The translations under genes were made by a program, and so were the position numbers. This document shows positions 22,903-36,606 of a stretch of 48,127 bases of DNA, piece by piece. The first letter of the stretch is position 1; every line of letters starts with the position of its first letter. Location of the stretch: contig CASDPF010000023.1 of NCBI GenBank assembly GCA_949282215.1, positions 1 to 48,127 on the forward strand, written 5' to 3'. Below the pieces are notes generated by a model. That model was given only the letters and a program-made list of their open reading frames with translations. It was not told the origin of the DNA and did no database searches. The stretch comes from an uncultured bacterium. Lineage in GTDB: Bacteria > Cyanobacteriota > Vampirovibrionia > Gastranaerophilales > Gastranaerophilaceae.

Positions 22903-23642
22903 ATGAAAAAGAGAAATGCTTTTACCTTAGCAGAAGTCCTAATTACATTAGGAATAATCGGAGTAGTAGCGGCTCTTACTCTGCCAGCGATAGTTCAAAA
23001 AAATTATGAAAAAGAAACGGTAGCAAGAGTAAAAAAAGCCTATCCTATTCAATTTTACAGCAGGCATACTTAATGGCATCTCAAAAAGACGGAACTCCAG
23101 ATGAGTGGGGAGCAACAGGCATGTATGAAGAGAGCAGTCATATTTTTCTGGCAAACAAATTTGCACCCTATATAAAAATAACGACGAATTGTGTTGGTAT
23201 GAGTAATGCGGATGTTAAAAAGAATTGTACTAATGTATATTATAATACAACAGAGTTCGCAAGCTATAAAATAGCAGATGGGACAACATTCATTTTTAGA
23301 ATATTTGATGGAAATTGTAATAGCCAATATGGTCCAATAATGCAGTTAAAACATGTATGTGGAAGTATACTTATAGACACAAATGCTACAGGAAAACCTA
23401 ATATAATAGGAAAAGATATATTTGCTTTTTATATTACAAAATCAGGAATATATCCTCAAGGAACAGAGTTTGATAGATTATCAATGAAAAATTATTGCAC
23501 ATCATCAAGGATATGGGGACAAAATTATAATGGCTACCGTAATGGTGGATCTTGTACCGCATGGGTATTGTATAATGAGAATATGGACTACTTGCGATGT
23601 GAATTGGATTGGGAAAGCGGTAAAACATCTTGTAAAAAATAA
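22903..23642 (+). pseudogene. type IV pilin-like protein gene, frameshifted by a 5-bp tandem duplication
   Basis: The 5' part encodes MKKRNAFTLAEVLITLGIIG, a class III prepilin signal with Ala at -1 of the cleavage site. After residue 47 the frame breaks at CCTATCCTAT (23039-23048); the paralogue at 35872 has a single unit. The shifted frame stops at 23071-23073. The correct frame then stays open for 189 codons to 23642 and aligns with the paralogue without gaps (MASQKDGTPDEWGATGMYE...). The stop and an in-frame ATG overlap as TAATG, so a headless C-terminal part could be made by reinitiation. Loss of one CCTAT would restore the gene, so this may be a recent or reversible OFF allele. Confidence 0.85.
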
Positions 23643-23835: not shown

Positions 23836-24708
23836 CTAGTCTCCCAAGTTAATTTGAGAGAATTGAACGATTTTATTTTTTCCGCGTTTTTTTGCATTAT
23901 ATAATGCATGTTCAGCATAGCGGATTATTGTATTTACATCCTCATCTACGTTTTCAAGACAAGGATATGATGAAATACCGCCTGAAATTGTAATAGGATG
24001 TCTTTCTTCTTCACCTGCAGGAATAAATTCCATCTTTTCAATATCACGTCTGAAACGTTCTGCAAAAAGGAATGCATTTTCTTCAGATGTGTTCGGAAGG
24101 ATTAGAAGAAATTCTTCATCACCATATCTTGTTAAAATATCTTCTTTTCTGATAAGCTGTTTAAGCTTGTCAGCGATAGAACGAAGCAATACATCGCCCC
24201 ATTCATAACCGTAGATATCATTGACAACTTTGAAGAAATCGAGGTCAAATAACAGGCAAGAAAGTTTTGTACCATAACGTTTTGCACGTGAAATTTCCTG
24301 CTCAAGACGTTCTTGCAAGTATTTTCTGTTATGCAAACCCGTGAGTTCATCTGTTGTTGATACTTGGAGTAATTTATCTCTTAGTTCTTTAATTTTTAAT
24401 AAAGCTTTTGCTCTGATTAAAAGCTCGTCATTATCTACAGGAGTTTTAATCAAATCATAAGTTACTGCACGAACAGTCGTTCCCTTAAATATTTCTCCAA
24501 CAAACAATACAGGAGCTTTGAATTTTGTTACCATCAGTACATCTTTGATATTTGGTACATCTTCTACGATAATCAAACCGGGATTTAAGGTTTCATATTC
24601 TCTTAATTTTTCGGCATCTTCAATTCTTACGTTAACGTCATCAAGCTTAGCAAGCACATCTGCAAGACCTGAAACTTGTTTACTTGTATATACAATAATA
24701 TTTTTCAT
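23836..24708 (-). CDS. receiver-like plus GGDEF-domain protein with altered active site
   Basis: 290 aa from MKNIIVYTSKQ, with GAGGG about 9 nt upstream. Residues 1-115 look like a degenerate response-regulator receiver (LIIVEDVPNIKDVLMVT...FKAPVLFVG; no clear phospho-Asp). A helical linker (LLIRAKALLKIKELRDKLLQ) leads to GGDEF: TDELTGLHNRKYLQ, FDLDFFKVVND and signature RYGDEEF, where the second Gly of GGEEF is Asp. The RKED inhibitory site sits exactly five residues before the signature. It may be a weak cyclase or a c-di-GMP/GTP-binding effector. It converges on the pilin copy 1 gene. Confidence 0.9.
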   Translation of the reverse strand: MKNIIVYTSKQVSGLADVLAKLDDVNVRIEDAEKLREYETLNPGLIIVEDVPNIKDVLMVTKFKAPVLFVGEIFKGTTVRAVTYDLIKTPVDNDELLIRAKALLKIKELRDKLLQVSTTDELTGLHNRKYLQERLEQEISRAKRYGTKLSCLLFDLDFFKVVNDIYGYEWGDVLLRSIADKLKQLIRKEDILTRYGDEEFLLILPNTSEENAFLFAERFRRDIEKMEFIPAGEEERHPITISGGISSYPCLENVDEDVNTIIRYAEHALYNAKKRGKNKIVQFSQINLGD

Positions 24709-24842
24709 GTCAAACCCTCTCTTAGCAAGAAGTGTAGCATATTGAATGTTCCAACGCAATTTGTAAAGATATTTTAATAAATTGAGGAAAGTTTAAAGTT
24801 AAAACACTAAAAATACGTATATTATATTGTGAAAGGTTAGAA

Positions 24843-27800
24843 ATGTCGGATCCAATTTTAATAAATATATTAATACAAGCAGAAGGTTTGTCAGGACAAA
24901 ATGCTGAGAAGCGTCGTGCTGAACTGGAAAAGAAATCCACAGCTGAATTGCAGGAATTGCTTTCAAAAAGTTCTGATAAAGCCTCTTATGAATTGAATTT
25001 TTACCAGTCTGTCGGTTGGATGCCGGAGGCTAAACCCCAGCCTAATTACACCTCAGGGCAACAAGAAGCTATGCAATTTATGAAAGAAATGCTCGCTGAT
25101 GCAATGAGGATAATGTATGAGCAAGATAAAAAAGAAAATTCTGTAAGCAAAAGCGTTAATTTTGTTAAAGAAGTTTTTAATACCGAATATGCACAATCAA
25201 ATGTTACATCTGTAATTCAATCATTTCAAGAAGATTTTTCTGCAATAGAAGATGCGGCAAGGAAAGTTCCATCAGAATTTGAAGCTGAATTTCAGAAACG
25301 CAGAGGTGTAAAGGTTGATGAGAAAAAAATTGCAGACTGTAGCCAAAAAGCAAAAGATATGGCGGAATTTCAGGCTTCTACAGATGTGATAGATGGATTA
25401 AAAATAAAACTGAAAAATGCTTTAGTAAACGATACTTCTAATAATTTTACTCGTGCAGGAGAAAAGGCTATTTTAGAGACTCTTTCCACTATGGGTTATA
25501 CTAAAATCGGGGAGGTTATTCAAGCTGCAATGAAAGGTCATGAGAATGATCCTGCCGTAAAAGATTATATGAAAGAAAATGGTCGTTTTGCAGTTAGAAA
25601 AGATGAAGACGGCAAAATCGGGATTTATCGGGAAACAAAAGAAGGTGGATGGCAGCCTATAACTCAAGAACAGGCTCAAATTATCGGTAAAGAAATTGAA
25701 TTACGTTTAAATAAGCTTCATTCTGATATTTTAGGGGTAGACATTCCTGAAAATGCAACAAGTGAAGAAATTGCGAAATTGAATGAAGCAAAAATGGCAC
25801 AATATAAAGCTGATTATGAAAAAAGCTTTGCTCAAGCTTATGGAAAAAAAGACTTAAAACAACTTTCACAAAATTATGTAATGAGCCAAGAACAAGGTCA
25901 GGCGTATGTTCAGATGGGTGTAAATATTCTTGCTATGGCAGGAGCTATGTTCTCTGGCGGAGGTACGCTTGCATTAGTTTCAACCGGTGTAATGCTTACA
26001 AATCCTGTAGGATTTATTCAAAAAGCTACAGATGCAGATGGAATGACTGCTGAAGATTGGAAAAATTATGGTTCAGAACTTATAGAACAGGCAGGATGGA
26101 TGGCTTTAGGTATGGGTGCAGGTAAAGTCGGAGATCTTACGCGTAGTTTTGTAAAAGTCAAAGGACTTGCAAAAGTTATGAAAGATGGAGGTAAATCTTT
26201 AGATGACTTTATAAAAATTGCAGCTAAAAGTCCTGACATCCCTGCTGATGTTGCAAAAAGTCTTAAAACCGTTACAAGACTTGCGAATACTGCAGGTGTC
26301 ACAACTGAAGTAGCGACTGACATGGCAACGACAATTGCATTACAAAAAGATGGTGCGACAAGTATGGATTGGATTATGTCAATTGGAGGTTCATTAGTCG
26401 GTACTAAAATGCAAAAAGTTCTTGCTCCTATGTCACCTGATGCAAAAGTTGCTTATGTGATGGATGCGTTTAAAGATTTTAAATTATCTGAAACAGAAGC
26501 TAAACAATTGCTTAAAGCTATGGATGATTCGGCAAATGGACTTGCTCCGTTGAATAAACAAGATGTGTCAAATAATTCTCAGTATCAAGCAGAATTGGCT
26601 GATTTAAATGAAAAATTTAAAAATAAAGAAATCTCAGCCTCTGAGCTTTTGGCTGCCAAAAAAGCCCTAAGAGCTAAATATGAACAAGAAAATACGGTAA
26701 ATCATTCTCCGGCCTCGCCGACTAATCAAAAAGCTTCTTCAAAAGAAGATGCTCAAACAAATCCTGCTCAAAAAAGCGGGCCTGTTTTAGAGGGTGGAGT
26801 TCGTGCTGATGAACTTGATGAAGTTGCTCCGTTTGCACAAAGACTTGAAAATTCTTCTGATGTCGGAGATTATATCCCAGTGTCTACAAAAAAACTTGAT
26901 ATTAAAGAGTTTAAAAATAAATTAGTTTCACTAACAGACCCGAAAGACGGAACTCCATTATTTAAAGAATTGGATAGTGAATTTTTCATAGATAAGTTTG
27001 GGGTTGAGAATATCGCAGAAGTTTCCAAATTTATAGATTTTGCTCGTCAAAAGTATGATGATAATTTTGTCAAAGAGTGCTTATTTTCTTCTAACACTGA
27101 TAATAAAATAGATCCTATTGATAAAATTAAATTGCAAAGAGATTTGATAGAAAATTTTGATAATACTCCTGAAAATGCTCAATCAATTTTGACTTTATTT
27201 TGGACTATAAGCCCAAGTAAATTTAAAGCTGCTCAAATTCTATCGGATATGCCAAAACGAGAAAATTCACCAGATGCTCAATGGAATGATTTGAATAGTT
27301 TTATTGAAAAAGTTGAATTGTTTGATACTAATAAGTCAGTTGAAGCCTTAAATCGTGCTGTTACATTACAAGTTAATAATGGTGCTAAAGCATTTGGCAT
27401 AAAAGATATAGATAAAATTATTCAGATAAAAAGTTTATTATTAAGTAATGATTTTTCAGATGATGAGCTTGTAAAACTTTCTTTATCATTAGTTGGTGTT
27501 GCAAAAAACAGTAATGATTTTGGATATATTGCTGACGTTATTGCTTCTCCTAAAAATAAAGATCTTCAGACCGAAATTAAAGAAATACTGAAAGATGATA
27601 AATTTATGACTATTGTCGCTAAAATGCATCAATTGCAGCCTAAGATTTATGATAAAGTTTATGCGACTAAAATTGCTCAACCTAATATAAAGGATAAAAC
27701 TTCAAAATCTTTAATTAAACGGAATGCCAAAAAAATTAAAGATCCTCAAAAACGTCTTGATTTTGTTACTAATATGGAAAAAACACTTCCAAACCTATCT

Positions 27801-30059
27801 GAAATACAGGATAAATATATTTTGAGTAAAATTTATGCAGAAACTTCTAATATAGTAGAAAGATTGAATACAAACGATGCTGACGTTAAGTCTGAGGACT
27901 ACTTAAACTTAATTGAATATGTAAATATTGATAAAGAATTTCGTGGCGAAACGACTTATGTATATGGAAATGCTTCAGCTTATTTAGAATATATGGAAAA
28001 CGAATATCCTGATAGTGCAAAAGTTTTTAAGGATTTAGTTGAAAAATATCAAACGATGTCAAAAGAAGATTTTGATGAATATTTTGATCAAAATACCACT
28101 CCTGAAATCACAAAATTAGGGATAATCAACTATGTAAAAGATAAACAAATTGAGCAATTGAAGAATTATATAAATCAAAACTCTTATAAAGAAGGTAATT
28201 TAAATTACAGTAAAAAAGAGTTAGATAGTATTTCTCGTTTCTACAGAGACAAGTATCTATCTCAATTGCCTGAAGCGGCAAGGGAACGTTGCGAAAAAAT
28301 TTATGATTCGTTTGGTGTAAAAATGTTTTTAGCTGATGAAAATGATACAAAAGTACTTGATTTTGTATATAATGAGCTGCTGGAATGGCAAAAAGCAAGC
28401 AGAGGACAAGCTCAAATGCCTCCTGTTATTGATTTAAGTGTCATTAAAAAAGATTATATAGATAAAGTTTTCCAAGCTGGTGGATATTGTAATTCCGTTA
28501 CTAAAAATGTGAGTGTCAATGGCAGATATTTAGAAAATGTGAAACATGCACTAAGACATGAAATTGCTCATGCAAATGATTCAAAAGTTAAGACCAAAGA
28601 CGGTATTATAACTGTCTATAACAAAGATGGTTCAGCAGAAGATATTAATATAGATGAAATTATTGTCCATAAAAAAGTACAAAAACTTGATAGTAATGGA
28701 AAGCCAATGTTTAATCCTGATGGAACTCCTATTATGGAAAAAGCAAGGGCAGAAAATGGGACTTTAGATCCTGATTTGGATAAATGTAAATATGTTGAAG
28801 AATTTAAAAATGCAGGAATTCCAGAGTGGGATATTCCTTATGCGTATACAAATAAAGCAGAATTTGTAGCTGTAGCTGCTGAAGGAGATTATAGTAAATA
28901 TTCTCCTGAATTTAAAGAATTGCTTGTAAAACTGGGACTTCCGAAATGGATGTTTAATATGAAAGCAAAGGATAATGTAAATACTGATCTTAATTTATAC
29001 ACAAATAATAAATTTGCCAGTAAATATTCAGCTGAAGATAATCAAAAAATTTCCGCAAATTCAGAAAAATTCTTCAACTGGGTATCTAAAAATATTAATG
29101 AAATAACAAATGATTATTGGAAATATATTGATCAAACATTTGGAACTCTAAGTACACGTGTGAAAGATTTAGAAGGGCTGAATGAAAAAATTTACCGTGA
29201 AATAGATAGAATAGATCAAAAAATCGCAGATTTAGAAGATATAGATCAATATAATGCCACAAAACTTAAAAAAGGTGATGAGCCTTTAACTCAAGAAGCT
29301 GCAAATATTTTGATTGAAAAATATAATATGCAGAAACAAAATTTAATTAATGATTATGATACGGTTATCAACACAGTTCAAGATGCATTTGGTGCAAGAC
29401 TTGTACTTGACGATACTTCGCCTGCAGCTATTGCAAAAGTTCATCAATCTTTGTTAAATGCTATAGACAGCGGGGAAATAAAAATCCTCGAGATTAATAA
29501 CTATCAAGGTGAAGGAGCTGTTCCATATTTCTCCAGTGCTCAAATAAAACAGCTACAAGCACATTGCAGACGTCAGGGATATGAATTGAAAGTTATTTCT
29601 GATGTAAATGCCCCTGCAGGAAAAGAAGATTTATACAATAAAGATTATAATTCTCAAAAAGCAATTAAAGCTTCCGGTTATACAACTTGTCAGATGAATA
29701 TTCAACATAAAAACGGCGTTATTAGTGAATTTCAAATTCGCGGTAAATATATCAATGAGCTTGCAGAAAGCGAGCATATTTTCTATGATATCTCACAAAA
29801 CAAAGATTTAAGCAAGGGCAATCCGAGAATAAAAGCCATTACAGATCCGCTCGTCAGAGTTGTCGAAAATATGAATGCTAAAGGTAATGAACACATAAAA
29901 GAAGCATATTCAAAATATTTGACGGAATGTTATAAATTTGCACGTATGATGGAGTTAGGTATCCCTATGAAAAAACCGGTTCTGCCTGATATTGTAAATC
30001 CTATGCTTGATATTGATAATATAATTTATATTCATAATCAAATAACTTCCATAAAATAG
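24843..30059 (+). CDS. 1738-aa multidomain protein with HExxH protease motif and C-terminal RelA/SpoT-type synthetase domain
   Basis: AAAGG 6 nt before the ATG. Parts: polar helical N-terminus (1-330); Gly-rich hydrophobic segment (about 355-400, MGVNILAMAGAMFSGGG); helical region; low-complexity linker (about 615-650, SPASPTNQKASSKED); long helical region (690-1190); a zinc-protease-like part with HEIAH (1239-1243) and E1340 in AEFVAVAAEG; and an RSH-like nucleotidyltransferase (about 1425-1690). In the last: RVKDLEGLNEKIYR (1439-1452) matches the ATP-binding R-x-K...K-x-x-R motif; D1514 in VQDAFGARL is the metal Asp; GYTTCQ (1612-1617) matches GYRSxH; EFQIR (1629-1633) matches ExQIR. Known RSH enzymes make (p)ppGpp; toxic versions make (p)ppApp or modify tRNA. 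Product here is unknown. No signal peptide. Resembles a large effector or polymorphic toxin (inference). Confidence 0.85.
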   Translation: MSDPILINILIQAEGLSGQNAEKRRAELEKKSTAELQELLSKSSDKASYELNFYQSVGWMPEAKPQPNYTSGQQEAMQFMKEMLADAMRIMYEQDKKENSVSKSVNFVKEVFNTEYAQSNVTSVIQSFQEDFSAIEDAARKVPSEFEAEFQKRRGVKVDEKKIADCSQKAKDMAEFQASTDVIDGLKIKLKNALVNDTSNNFTRAGEKAILETLSTMGYTKIGEVIQAAMKGHENDPAVKDYMKENGRFAVRKDEDGKIGIYRETKEGGWQPITQEQAQIIGKEIELRLNKLHSDILGVDIPENATSEEIAKLNEAKMAQYKADYEKSFAQAYGKKDLKQLSQNYVMSQEQGQAYVQMGVNILAMAGAMFSGGGTLALVSTGVMLTNPVGFIQKATDADGMTAEDWKNYGSELIEQAGWMALGMGAGKVGDLTRSFVKVKGLAKVMKDGGKSLDDFIKIAAKSPDIPADVAKSLKTVTRLANTAGVTTEVATDMATTIALQKDGATSMDWIMSIGGSLVGTKMQKVLAPMSPDAKVAYVMDAFKDFKLSETEAKQLLKAMDDSANGLAPLNKQDVSNNSQYQAELADLNEKFKNKEISASELLAAKKALRAKYEQENTVNHSPASPTNQKASSKEDAQTNPAQKSGPVLEGGVRADELDEVAPFAQRLENSSDVGDYIPVSTKKLDIKEFKNKLVSLTDPKDGTPLFKELDSEFFIDKFGVENIAEVSKFIDFARQKYDDNFVKECLFSSNTDNKIDPIDKIKLQRDLIENFDNTPENAQSILTLFWTISPSKFKAAQILSDMPKRENSPDAQWNDLNSFIEKVELFDTNKSVEALNRAVTLQVNNGAKAFGIKDIDKIIQIKSLLLSNDFSDDELVKLSLSLVGVAKNSNDFGYIADVIASPKNKDLQTEIKEILKDDKFMTIVAKMHQLQPKIYDKVYATKIAQPNIKDKTSKSLIKRNAKKIKDPQKRLDFVTNMEKTLPNLSEIQDKYILSKIYAETSNIVERLNTNDADVKSEDYLNLIEYVNIDKEFRGETTYVYGNASAYLEYMENEYPDSAKVFKDLVEKYQTMSKEDFDEYFDQNTTPEITKLGIINYVKDKQIEQLKNYINQNSYKEGNLNYSKKELDSISRFYRDKYLSQLPEAARERCEKIYDSFGVKMFLADENDTKVLDFVYNELLEWQKASRGQAQMPPVIDLSVIKKDYIDKVFQAGGYCNSVTKNVSVNGRYLENVKHALRHEIAHANDSKVKTKDGIITVYNKDGSAEDINIDEIIVHKKVQKLDSNGKPMFNPDGTPIMEKARAENGTLDPDLDKCKYVEEFKNAGIPEWDIPYAYTNKAEFVAVAAEGDYSKYSPEFKELLVKLGLPKWMFNMKAKDNVNTDLNLYTNNKFASKYSAEDNQKISANSEKFFNWVSKNINEITNDYWKYIDQTFGTLSTRVKDLEGLNEKIYREIDRIDQKIADLEDIDQYNATKLKKGDEPLTQEAANILIEKYNMQKQNLINDYDTVINTVQDAFGARLVLDDTSPAAIAKVHQSLLNAIDSGEIKILEINNYQGEGAVPYFSSAQIKQLQAHCRRQGYELKVISDVNAPAGKEDLYNKDYNSQKAIKASGYTTCQMNIQHKNGVISEFQIRGKYINELAESEHIFYDISQNKDLSKGNPRIKAITDPLVRVVENMNAKGNEHIKEAYSKYLTECYKFARMMELGIPMKKPVLPDIVNPMLDIDNIIYIHNQITSIK

Positions 30060-30113
30060 CAAAAATAGTTTTTTATGGTTGTTAATTATAAAAAAAAGAG
30101 GTAAAATAAGTTT

Positions 30114-30548
30114 ATGATAAGTTTTGAAGGAAATAGTCAATTGAATAAAAAAATAAATCAGCTTTCTATAGAAAAATTAGAAAAAGTTTTACCAAAGAAT
30201 GAAATCGAAATTTTGCTAAAAAAGGTGAAAACTCGAGCTGAAATTGAAATGACCGAAATTGGTTCATTCCGACCTATTAAAGAGAACATTCAAAATCATA
30301 AACCTGTCATAGAAATAGGTAATGTTTCTTTGAACATTAGACCTACATCTAATCTAAACAGCAGTAAAGAAAGAATTCTTGAGGCTTCTGTATCTACAAA
30401 ATCTGGTCAGTATGTTATTGAAAAACAATTGGCAGAAGGTAATCGTGATGAAATTCTGAAATACTTAAATGATAAAAATTTTGATGAGAATTTTAAAAGA
30501 TTTCTGATGGAATGTTCTGATAATTTTGAGCAAAAAGGGCTTGAATAA
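30114..30548 (+). CDS. unknown 144-aa protein directly downstream of the RSH/zinc-protease giant
   Basis: A 54-bp gap and no terminator separate it from the giant gene, and GAGG lies 11 nt before the ATG. N-terminal helices (NKKINQLSIEKLEKVLPKNEIEILLKK), a beta-rich middle (KPVIEIGNVSLNIRP...ILEASVSTKSGQYVIEKQL) and a helical acidic end. No transmembrane segment or known motif. Position would suit an immunity or chaperone protein for the giant, but the only support is location. Confidence 0.78.
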   Translation: MISFEGNSQLNKKINQLSIEKLEKVLPKNEIEILLKKVKTRAEIEMTEIGSFRPIKENIQNHKPVIEIGNVSLNIRPTSNLNSSKERILEASVSTKSGQYVIEKQLAEGNRDEILKYLNDKNFDENFKRFLMECSDNFEQKGLE

Positions 30549-30585: not shown

Positions 30586-31116
30586 ATGACAGAGCTGTTT
30601 ACGATTAAAATAAGACCTATGACACAGATGGATTTGGATAATGTAATTTCCATTGAAGCGGAATCTTATGGTGACCATCATTGGTCAAAGGAATCTTTTT
30701 TTAATGAATTATCCAATGAGCTTGCGAGATATTATTGTGCATTTGATGCTAATGGCAATCTTATGGGATATGCGGGTACTTGGCAAATTCTTGAAGAAGC
30801 TCATATTACAAATATTGCGGTTTCTCCTGATTATAGGAGAAAAAAAGTCGGAGAGGCTCTACTTACAACGATTATCAATGATTGCAGAAATAATGGAATA
30901 AAATATATTACTCTGGAAGTCCGTGTAAGCAATACTCCTGCAATTAATCTTTATGAAAAATATGGTTTCAAATCTCTGGGCACAAGAAAAGGCTATTACC
31001 AAAATAATAATGAAGATGCCTTAATAATGTGGACAGAAAATATGTTTTACGATAAATTTAAATTAATATATGACAACAATCTAGAAGATTTGAAAAGGGT
31101 TGTAAATATAATATGA
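30586..31116 (+). CDS. rimI: ribosomal-protein-alanine N-acetyltransferase
   Basis: 176 aa GNAT. Acetyl-CoA loop RRKKVGEALL, preceded by ITNIAVSPDY, and the C-terminal NLYEKYGFKSLGTRKGYYQNNNEDALIM typical of RimI, which acetylates S18 Ala1 (family knowledge). About 25 extra residues at the C-terminus. The ATG lacks a Shine-Dalgarno but has a leaderless promoter. Its stop overlaps the next ATG by 4 nt (ATGA), so translation is coupled. Confidence 0.9.
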   Translation: MTELFTIKIRPMTQMDLDNVISIEAESYGDHHWSKESFFNELSNELARYYCAFDANGNLMGYAGTWQILEEAHITNIAVSPDYRRKKVGEALLTTIINDCRNNGIKYITLEVRVSNTPAINLYEKYGFKSLGTRKGYYQNNNEDALIMWTENMFYDKFKLIYDNNLEDLKRVVNII

Positions 31117-31805
31117 CACAGGAAGAACAAGAAGAACAGCAAGAACAACCGAAAAAAAAGCTCCGTGTAAAGACGGTTAAACCTAAAAAACGCCGAGGTA
31201 TAAGGTTAGGTGTAGGCAGCCTTGTTTTATTGATTTTTTGTTCTTTTTTACTTGTAATTTCGACTTTTTTGCAGTTGGATATAACTCATTTCATTATCCC
31301 GTCTAAGTTATTTTCAGGAGAGCCAACTCGAATAAAAGATTTTATTTTTACTTATAAATTTATCCCGCAAATTCCTGCAGTTATGTTTATTGTAGGACTT
31401 TTGGGGAGAAGATTAAGTATTACAAGTATTTTGCTTTATATAATTACAGGATTATTCTTCCTGCCTGTATTTGCACTTGGCGGTGGTTGGAGATATGTTT
31501 TTGAATACGGATTTGGTTATATTTTGGCATATATTCCCGCTGCGTTTTTTACTGGCATGATACTTAAAAAAGGATATTCTTATAAAAATACTGCAAAAGC
31601 TGTCTTTGTCGGGGTTTTAACCATACACATTCTTGGAATTATTTATATGATGTGTCTTGCTTCATTAAGACATACCGGATGGGGATTTGTGGGTGATTGG
31701 ATTGCAGCTCAAAGTGGACTTAAAATAATTTACGATTTTATTTTTAGCTACATTCTTGTGTTAGTTGCGAAATATTTAAGAATTATTTTGTGGCTGTATT
31801 TGTAA
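31113..31805 (+). CDS. bioY: BioY-like biotin transporter (ECF S component)
   Basis: 230 aa. The first 35 residues are cytoplasmic, Glu/Gln then Lys/Arg-rich; five or six hydrophobic helices follow. The BioY-like segment GGGWRYVFEYGFGYILAYIPAAFFTG matches G-x-G...GY-x-x-x-x-AAF-x-x-G. BioY binds biotin, alone or with an EcfAT module; no such genes are nearby. The charged extension is unusual. Overlaps rimI by 4 nt and its 3' end overlaps the convergent EamA gene by 23 nt. Confidence 0.78.
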   Translation: MTQEEQEEQQEQPKKKLRVKTVKPKKRRGIRLGVGSLVLLIFCSFLLVISTFLQLDITHFIIPSKLFSGEPTRIKDFIFTYKFIPQIPAVMFIVGLLGRRLSITSILLYIITGLFFLPVFALGGGWRYVFEYGFGYILAYIPAAFFTGMILKKGYSYKNTAKAVFVGVLTIHILGIIYMMCLASLRHTGWGFVGDWIAAQSGLKIIYDFIFSYILVLVAKYLRIILWLYL

Positions 31806-35679: not shown

Positions 35680-35871
35680 AAAAGGAGGACGTATGCAAAA
35701 AGCTTATATAGATAGAATTTCGGGGGGGGGGCTACCGACTAACAGATAAGTCAAGCATTTCCGACTTAGACCTCCGAAGTAAAGCAAAAGAGCTGAACGT
35801 AAGCCGTGCCAAAAGACACGGTGATTTTTGATGCAAAATTTTTGAAAAAAGTAATAAATATGGAGGAAGTT
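35680..35871 (+). promoter_or_regulatory. pilin leader copy 2: short ORF with a G10 tract, hairpin and anti-Shine-Dalgarno
   Basis: Same order as copy 1: GGAGG (35684-35688), short ORF from 35693, G10 tract (35722-35731), CCTCC (35771-35775), CCGTG/CACGG hairpin (35804-35808, 35817-35821) followed by T5, AAATTTTTGAAAAA, and the pilin GGAGG (35862-35866). CCTCC can pair with either ribosome site, so two exclusive folds are possible. Unlike copy 1 it has a full promoter. Confidence 0.72.
35693..35749 (+). CDS. 18-residue leader ORF with poly-G tract (copy 2)
   Basis: MQKAYIDRISGGGLPTNR then TAA, with GGAGG 4 nt upstream. One G fewer would open the frame for 46 codons: ...GGGYRLTDKSSISDLD, then LRSKAKELNVSRAKRHGDF, ending at TGA near 35832. 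The SRAKRHG block lies in the same -1 register in copy 1. Translation is unproven. Confidence 0.5.
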   Translation: MQKAYIDRISGGGLPTNR

Positions 35872-36606
35872 ATGAAAAAGAAAAACGCATTCACTTTAGC
35901 AGAAGTGCTGATAACATTAGGAATAATCGGCGTAGTAGCAGCTCTTACGCTGCCTGCAATAGTTCAAAAAAATTATGAGAAAGAAACGGTAGCCAGAGTA
36001 AAAAAAGCTTATTCAATTTTACAGCAGGCATACTTAATGGCATCTCAAAAAGACGGGACTCCTGATGAATGGGGAGCAACAGGCATGTATGAAACAAGCA
36101 GTCATATTTTTCTTGCCAACAAATTTGCACCTTATATAAAAATAACGACGAATTGTGTTGGAATGAATAATGAGGAGGTAAAAAAAATTTGTACTGCCAT
36201 ATATTTTGATACAACATCTTATGCAAGCTATAAAATAGCAGATGGAACAACATTTATTTTTAGAATATGGGATGGACAATGTAATGGACAGTATGGTTCT
36301 ACAAAACAGCTAAAAGATGTATGTGGACGTATAATGGTAGATGTAAATGCTACAGGAAAACCTAATATATTAGGGAAAGATATATTCAATTTTTATATTA
36401 CAAAATCAGGAATATATCCTACAGGAACGGAATTTGATAGATTATCAATGAAAGACTACTGTACAAAATCCAGAGAATGGGGAGGGGCTTATAATAGTTA
36501 CTACAATGGTGTAGCGTGTGCAGCTTGGGTATTGTATAAGGAGAATATGGACTATTTGCGATGTGAATTGGATTGGGATAGCGGTAAAAAATCTTGTAAA
36601 AAATAA
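35872..36606 (+). CDS. type IV pilin-like (pseudopilin) protein, intact copy
   Basis: 244 aa from the ATG with GGAGG 5 nt upstream. Short basic leader MKKKNA, then FTLAEVLITLGIIGVVAALT: the class III signal with Glu at +5, and Ala instead of Gly at -1. The globular part has six or more Cys, including a C-terminal pair (RCELDWDSGKKSC) that can close a disulphide loop as in pilins. Processed by prepilin peptidase and displayed on, or part of, a type IV or type II-like filament (family knowledge). A GTG-started extension to 35806 is open but lacks a ribosome site. Paralogous to 22903-23642, with divergence concentrated in the middle. Confidence 0.93.
   Translation: MKKKNAFTLAEVLITLGIIGVVAALTLPAIVQKNYEKETVARVKKAYSILQQAYLMASQKDGTPDEWGATGMYETSSHIFLANKFAPYIKITTNCVGMNNEEVKKICTAIYFDTTSYASYKIADGTTFIFRIWDGQCNGQYGSTKQLKDVCGRIMVDVNATGKPNILGKDIFNFYITKSGIYPTGTEFDRLSMKDYCTKSREWGGAYNSYYNGVACAAWVLYKENMDYLRCELDWDSGKKSCKK

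What the first reader, a model, noticed from the sequence alone, without database searches (positions are those of the whole stretch)
24843..30548. Giant protein joining a zinc-protease motif to an intact RSH (alarmone-synthetase-type) domain, with a small partner gene
Seen: HEIAH (1239-1243), a downstream E1340, and the four ordered RSH synthetase elements RVKDLEGLNEKIYR, D1514, GYTTCQ and EFQIR at the C-terminus. A 144-aa gene follows after 54 bp with no terminator. Known: RSH-fold toxins (Tas1, CapRel, FaRel) make (p)ppApp or pyrophosphorylate tRNA, and C-terminal position is typical of polymorphic toxins. Inferred: the protein is a self-processing or protease-linked effector, with the small gene as immunity or chaperone. 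G1445 replaces the usual Ser of the ATP motif and the Gln in GYTTCQ replaces His, so the product may be non-standard.
Basis: partly seen in the sequence, partly recalled or inferred. Interest (0 to 1): 0.88.

Follow-up and report, generated by a model that had tools for sequence, protein, structure and literature searches.

The report
Giant alarmone-synthetase toxin with immunity gene
A gut bacterium of the non-photosynthetic cyanobacterial order Gastranaerophilales carries a giant protein whose end is an alarmone-making enzyme domain like those of known bacterial toxins, and a small gene of a new family follows nearly every copy of that domain in its relatives, which best fits a toxin and its self-protection protein.

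Summary
The 1738-aa protein has an intact RelA/SpoT-type synthetase domain at its C-terminus and an intact zinc-peptidase domain before it; a 144-aa gene follows after 54 bp. A predicted structure of aa 1086-1738 (pLDDT 90) matches exported and small alarmone synthetases (SaEAS Z 13.1, RelP 11.8, CapRel 11.5, Tas1 9.1); the peptidase part resembles the zincin of anthrax lethal factor (Z about 7, modest). K1441, D1514 and E1629 are conserved in at least 35 of 36 relatives. The small gene tracks the RSH domain: 69 of 82 non-redundant RSH genes have it directly downstream, wherever the domain sits in the protein; of 52 small genes found by their own profile, 50 lie behind an RSH gene. Six giants sharing only the N-terminal carrier lack it. 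Related genomes show the same chromosomal site empty, with differently built giants, or with the small gene alone. This pattern fits a polymorphic-toxin effector with cognate immunity. Exported alarmone synthetases are already known; new are the clade, the peptidase fusion, the giant size and the immunity-candidate family, which matched no known fold. Toxicity, product, target and secretion route are untested. Self-processing is not supported.

The parts
24843..30059 (+). giant protein, 1738 aa (putative secreted effector)
   Evidence: own genome single copy; relatives in 34 of 59 genomes searched
24843..26700 (+). N-terminal carrier region (about aa 1-620) with a moderately hydrophobic segment at aa 362-380; shared with giants that lack RSH
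   Evidence: no family match
28098..29087 (+). zinc metallopeptidase domain (aa 1086-1415; HEIAH 1239-1243, third ligand E1340)
   Evidence: 20/20 conservation of H1239, E1240, H1243, E1340; model aligns to the lethal-factor zincin, Z about 7
29103..30056 (+). RSH (alarmone-synthetase-type) domain (aa 1421-1738): K1441, D1514, GYTTCQ 1612-1617, EFQIR 1629-1633
30114..30548 (+). 144-aa partner gene, candidate immunity protein
   Evidence: linkage; orphan copy; model and fold searches
23836..24759 (-). flanking GGDEF gene, left border of the variable site
30586..31805 (+). flanking genes (RimI-like 176 aa, BioY-like 230 aa; names assigned by eye, not scanned), right border of the variable site

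Best explanation
The locus encodes a polymorphic-toxin-style effector and its cognate immunity protein. The giant carries an N-terminal carrier region, a zinc-peptidase module and a C-terminal RSH nucleotidyltransferase that transfers pyrophosphate from ATP to a 3'-OH acceptor (a purine nucleotide or tRNA). It is proposed to act in the cytoplasm of a competing bacterium, stopping growth by alarmone overproduction, ATP drain or tRNA block. The 144-aa protein is proposed to bind the RSH domain and keep it inactive in the producer. Shown: domain folds by prediction, conserved catalytic residues, linkage of the pair, modular architecture, and a variable chromosomal site. Inferred: toxicity, export, bacterial target, product, binding by the small protein.
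For: RSH fold and residues: profile hits to PDB synthetases; model pLDDT 90.3; Foldseek and VIA matches to SaEAS, RelP, RelQ, CapRel and Tas1; K/D/E conserved. Partner follows RSH: 69 of 82 non-redundant RSH genes not at contig ends; 50 of 52 small genes found by profile alone have an RSH ORF upstream. It is kept when RSH is internal (six giants with more than 1000 residues after RSH) and with 320-450 aa RSH proteins that lack the carrier (L039, L074). It is absent from six carrier-sharing giants without RSH and from a peptidase giant without RSH (L055). Orphan small gene, intact and without giant remnants, at the same site (L121); sites empty of both genes (L125, L126, L137). The small protein diverges faster than RSH (60% against 74% identity at genus level) and the distance matrices correlate (r 0.89). 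A Sec-signal-like RSH giant has no partner (L072), as reported for Sec-exported synthetases (PMC12691689).
Against: No experiment. No recognised trafficking domain. One small gene follows an RSH-less giant with a kinase-like C-terminus (L165). Distance-matrix correlation with the peptidase is equally high (0.96), so it does not single out RSH. Only one true orphan was seen, with a shortened loop. L032 and L036 have the paired-type Gln but no partner detected.
Confidence: 0.62

Rival explanations
1. The 144-aa protein is a dedicated secretion chaperone of the RSH-bearing effector, for example for a type III-like export apparatus, rather than an immunity protein.
For: Small size and position directly downstream in the same operon; the order carries a conserved FlhA/FliP export gate even without flagellin; L165 keeps the small gene behind an RSH-less giant.
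Against: It follows the RSH domain and not the N-terminal carrier; orphan copy without giant; the model gave no match to a chaperone fold, though the fold search is inconclusive.
Confidence: 0.2
2. The pair is an intracellular toxin-antitoxin or phage-defence module (toxSAS type, as FaRel or CapRel) and the giant is a sensor, not an exported effector.
For: No signal peptide or trafficking domain recognised; compact 320-450 aa versions exist (L039, L074); toxSAS toxin-antitoxin modules have the same two-gene layout (PMC11782079).
Against: Giant multi-module proteins with lethal-factor-like peptidase, calpain-like or HD domains look like effectors; carrier-sharing giants swap C-terminal modules; no PADLOC match for the window domain; no relative found in viral contigs.
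Confidence: 0.12
3. An effector aimed mainly at eukaryotic host cells, with the peptidase as the main active module and RSH as a secondary activity.
For: Peptidase resembles lethal factor; XopAD, a plant-directed effector, carries RelA-like domains (PMC3482391, PMC12691689).
Against: An immunity-type partner is strictly linked to RSH, which suggests the substrate is in the producer's own cytoplasm; most relatives have RSH without the peptidase.
Confidence: 0.06

Closest known systems
Exported alarmone synthetases (SaEAS, VpEAS, AaEAS; PMC12691689)
   Same: RSH synthetase domain; SaEAS 8vx3 is the best structural match (Z 13.1); AaEAS is T7SS-linked, has its synthetase at the C-terminus and is also followed by a putative immunity gene
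   Different: no Sec signal, LXG, XopAD, MuF, Rhs/PAAR or DUF4157 domain recognised; Gln instead of His in GYxxxH; Gastranaerophilales are not named in the main text; new partner family; peptidase fusion
Tas1/Apk1 with Tis1 (type VI effector and immunity)
   Same: RSH toxin domain of a secreted effector with an adjacent immunity gene; VIA Z 9.1
   Different: no PAAR/T6SS parts seen; lower structural similarity; the partner model did not match Tis1 in the rows shown (inconclusive)
toxSAS toxin-antitoxin modules (FaRel, FaRel2, CapRel)
   Same: toxic RSH domain plus small neutraliser; CapRel Z 11.5
   Different: here mostly fused to larger multi-module proteins; partner not matched to Panacea, pZFD or Tis1 families
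XopAD/SKWP type III effectors
   Same: giant effectors with RelA/SpoT-like domains; weak NCBIfam hits of 5 members to XopAD and PRK09169
   Different: no SKWP match in the window protein; XopAD is plant-directed
MuF-Apk2 with IapK and Aph1 (PMC12226406)
   Same: polymorphic toxin with C-terminal RSH domain and downstream immunity gene
   Different: no MuF domain; syn2 GAR, syn3 Gln and syn4 IR differ from Apk2 (RYT, Asn, YH)

Membership tests
RSH / alarmone synthetase (RelA_SpoT, PF04607) | synthetase fold with RxK, D, GYxxx[HQ], ExQIR elements | tested here: met
   Pfam score of the window domain is below the curated cut-off (19.6 against 27 bits)
RSH / alarmone synthetase (RelA_SpoT, PF04607) | 3'-pyrophosphokinase activity | not testable with these tools
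   no assay
Exported alarmone synthetase (EAS) | recognisable export signal or secretion-system domain | tested here: inconclusive
   no trafficking family matched; secretion untested
toxSAS | growth inhibition by the RSH domain, relieved by an adjacent partner | not testable with these tools
   adjacent partner present; activity untested
Polymorphic toxin system | conserved carrier with exchangeable C-terminal toxin modules | tested here: met
   carrier shared by giants with and without RSH; different giants at one site
Polymorphic toxin system | toxin-specific immunity gene directly downstream | tested here: inconclusive
   linkage to RSH met; immunity function untested
Tis1 / pZFD / Panacea neutralisers | fold or sequence match of the 144-aa protein | tested here: inconclusive
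   no Pfam or NCBIfam hit above cut-off; no significant fold match
Lethal-factor-type gluzincin (M34-like) | HExxH plus downstream Glu on a zincin fold | tested here: met
   the resemblance to lethal factor itself is modest (Z about 7), so membership of M34 is not claimed

The most novel reading that the evidence does not exclude
The giants are substrates of the FlhA/FliP-type export apparatus that nearly all sampled Gastranaerophilales keep even without flagellin, so this would be an antibacterial, immunity-guarded type III-like effector system in non-photosynthetic cyanobacteria, with an RSH clade whose conserved Gln changes the pyrophosphate acceptor.
Probability: 0.15. Interest if true: 0.88.

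Novelty: new variant of a known kind. Interest (0 to 1): 0.62.

Why it matters
Gastranaerophilales are gut bacteria for which the paper searches here found no described secreted effectors. Cyanobacteria were described as strikingly poor in polymorphic toxins (PMC3482391). A widespread RSH effector family with a strictly linked partner of unmatched fold would add a new immunity family and a directly testable toxin pair, and standard annotation misses it because the window domain scores below the Pfam cut-off.

Tried and rejected
Plasmid search with the giant: no match. PADLOC: no match for the window domain. Viral contigs: none encodes a relative. VirB4-type T4SS: 0 of 39 genomes. Fold search of the small protein in PDB and viral libraries: nothing at E below 0.001; PUR/Whirly-like rows have Z below 8 and are treated as chance. 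Distance-matrix co-evolution does not discriminate RSH from peptidase. Housekeeping role rejected: the genome has its own 745-aa RSH ORF and the giant is patchy. Self-processing by the peptidase rejected for lack of consistent co-occurrence. A hydrophobic hairpin as a general translocation marker: only 32 of 69 paired proteins show a hydrophobic segment at the threshold used. Fusing the two genes for a complex prediction was not done because the tool returns no inter-chain confidence.

Full report
Check of the observation. The gap is 54 bp, and the consensus scan finds no terminator-like site in it. The giant is single copy in its 2.19-Mb genome. The organism is placed by its relatives: near-identical loci come from Gastranaerophilales MAGs, and a close one from Candidatus Scatousia excrementigallinarum.

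The RSH domain. Full-length Pfam and NCBIfam scans give nothing significant, because the window domain alone scores 19.6 bits against a cut-off of 27. A family alignment removes the doubt: 32 of 35 members match RelA_SpoT, and the profile finds YwaC and other synthetases in the PDB, best E 1.5e-11. The predicted structure of aa 1086-1738 has mean pLDDT 90.3 and pTM 0.86. Its best matches are small and exported alarmone synthetases: SaEAS Z 13.1, RelP 11.8, RelQ 11.7, CapRel 11.5, Tas1 9.1. K1441 is kept in 35 of 36 aligned sequences, D1514 in 36 and E1629 in 35. The genome has its own separate 745-aa RSH ORF, so the giant is not the housekeeping enzyme.

The Gln. In the GYxxxH motif, which recognises guanosine in RSH enzymes (PMC12226406), this family has Gln. 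After correcting seven motif misassignments by eye, all 69 RSH domains with the small partner have Gln. Of the 13 without it, 9 have His, Asn or Val. The script's own test before correction gave p 2.5e-7; the sequences are related, so this is a clade marker and not an independent association. It does not tell the product: replacing motifs in Apk2 did not change specificity.

The peptidase. HExxH and E1340 are identical in 20 of 20 aligned sequences. The first 284 residues of the model align to the lethal-factor zincin with Z about 7, a modest score. The module occurs with RSH in 16 of the 69 pairs, without RSH in L055, and as a 479-aa protein in L104. In L180 the order is RSH then peptidase. 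It is therefore an independent module; self-processing is possible but has no support here.

The partner gene. Among 84 non-redundant RSH proteins, 69 have a family member directly downstream on the same strand; the gap is -11 to 97 bp in all but one, where it is 354 bp. Two are cut by contig ends and 13 have none detected. One of the 13, L035, has a 148-aa neighbour that looks like a divergent member. The reverse test is stronger because it does not start from RSH. The small-protein profile found 52 further genes whose neighbourhoods were fetched, and 50 have an RSH ORF directly upstream. The partner stays at the 3' end even when RSH is internal with more than 1000 residues after it, and when the RSH protein is only 320-450 aa. 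Giants that share the N-terminal carrier but lack RSH do not have it: L167, L168, L169, L170, L171 and L172. In L168 and L172 another short gene follows within a few bases.

The site. In the window the pair lies between a GGDEF gene and RimI/BioY-like genes. The same borders enclose differently built giants in other genomes: 3330 aa in L034, and 955 to 1752 aa in L173-L182. They enclose nothing in L125, L126 and L137, and in L121 only the small gene plus a 302-aa gene that is also present in related loci. In L121 the small ORF is intact, 50% identical to its nearest relative in L182, and no remnant of a giant is detectable. This is what retained immunity looks like, although it is a single case with a shortened loop.

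Immunity or chaperone. Linkage to the toxin-like domain rather than the carrier, and the orphan, favour immunity. One exception points the other way: L165 has the small gene overlapping a giant without RSH but with a kinase-like C-terminus (domain judged by eye); that giant appears broken at its N-terminus. The predicted fold of the small protein (pLDDT 76; helices flanking a four-stranded sheet) has no convincing match, so fold does not decide.

Export. No trafficking domain was found. VirB4-type T4SS is absent from 39 genomes. FlhA-type (39 of 39) and FliP-type (38 of 39) export-gate proteins are present throughout the order sample, while flagellin is found in only 18 of 39 and not in the window's genome. 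The window's genome has a FliE, FliF, FliH and FlhA cluster. This makes a type III-like route conceivable, but nothing links the giant to it.

Prior art. RelA/SpoT domains in polymorphic toxins and XopAD were noted in 2012 (PMC3482391). Tas1/Apk1, Apk2 and toxSAS modules are characterised, and about 600 exported alarmone synthetases with several export domains were reported in 2025 (PMC12691689), including one T7SS-linked protein with a putative immunity gene. The present family is a new variant: new lineage, giant multi-module architecture, Gln clade, and a partner family without a known match. Supplementary files of the 2025 paper could not be read, so some members may be listed there.

Noticed in passing
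L140:10836-16943, L141:9110-10585 (own genome, contigs C11 and C8): FlhA/FliP-type export gate conserved in nearly all Gastranaerophilales sampled although flagellin is found in only 18 of 39 genomes; also a roughly 495-aa protein carrying only the C-terminal half of FlhA.
   Followed up: partly
N-termini of many short ORFs, e.g. L099_10983, L101_14510, and several small partners: An N-terminal [NS]F-x-G motif occurs in 18 of 534 short ORFs within the first 45 residues against 4 in the next 45; it may be a lineage-specific signal.
   Followed up: partly
L052:5407-6863 and L111:2734-4278: RSH proteins with Asn at the Gln/His position, each followed by a 122-126 aa gene of apparently another family.
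   Followed up: no
L165:4620-8274: Small partner gene overlapping a giant without RSH but with a kinase-like C-terminus; the giant looks broken at its N-terminus.
   Followed up: partly
L072:1656-8870 (Deltaproteobacteria MAG): 2404-aa protein with a signal-peptide-like N-terminus and a C-terminal RSH domain of the Gln type, without partner gene.
   Followed up: partly
window 23073-23642 and 35806-36606: Paralogues about 80% identical; the longer one has a pilin-like N-terminus (FTLAEVLITLGIIGVVAA).
   Followed up: no
L030, L045, L037: Other giants of the set carry HD-domain or calpain-like peptidase matches besides RSH.
   Followed up: no
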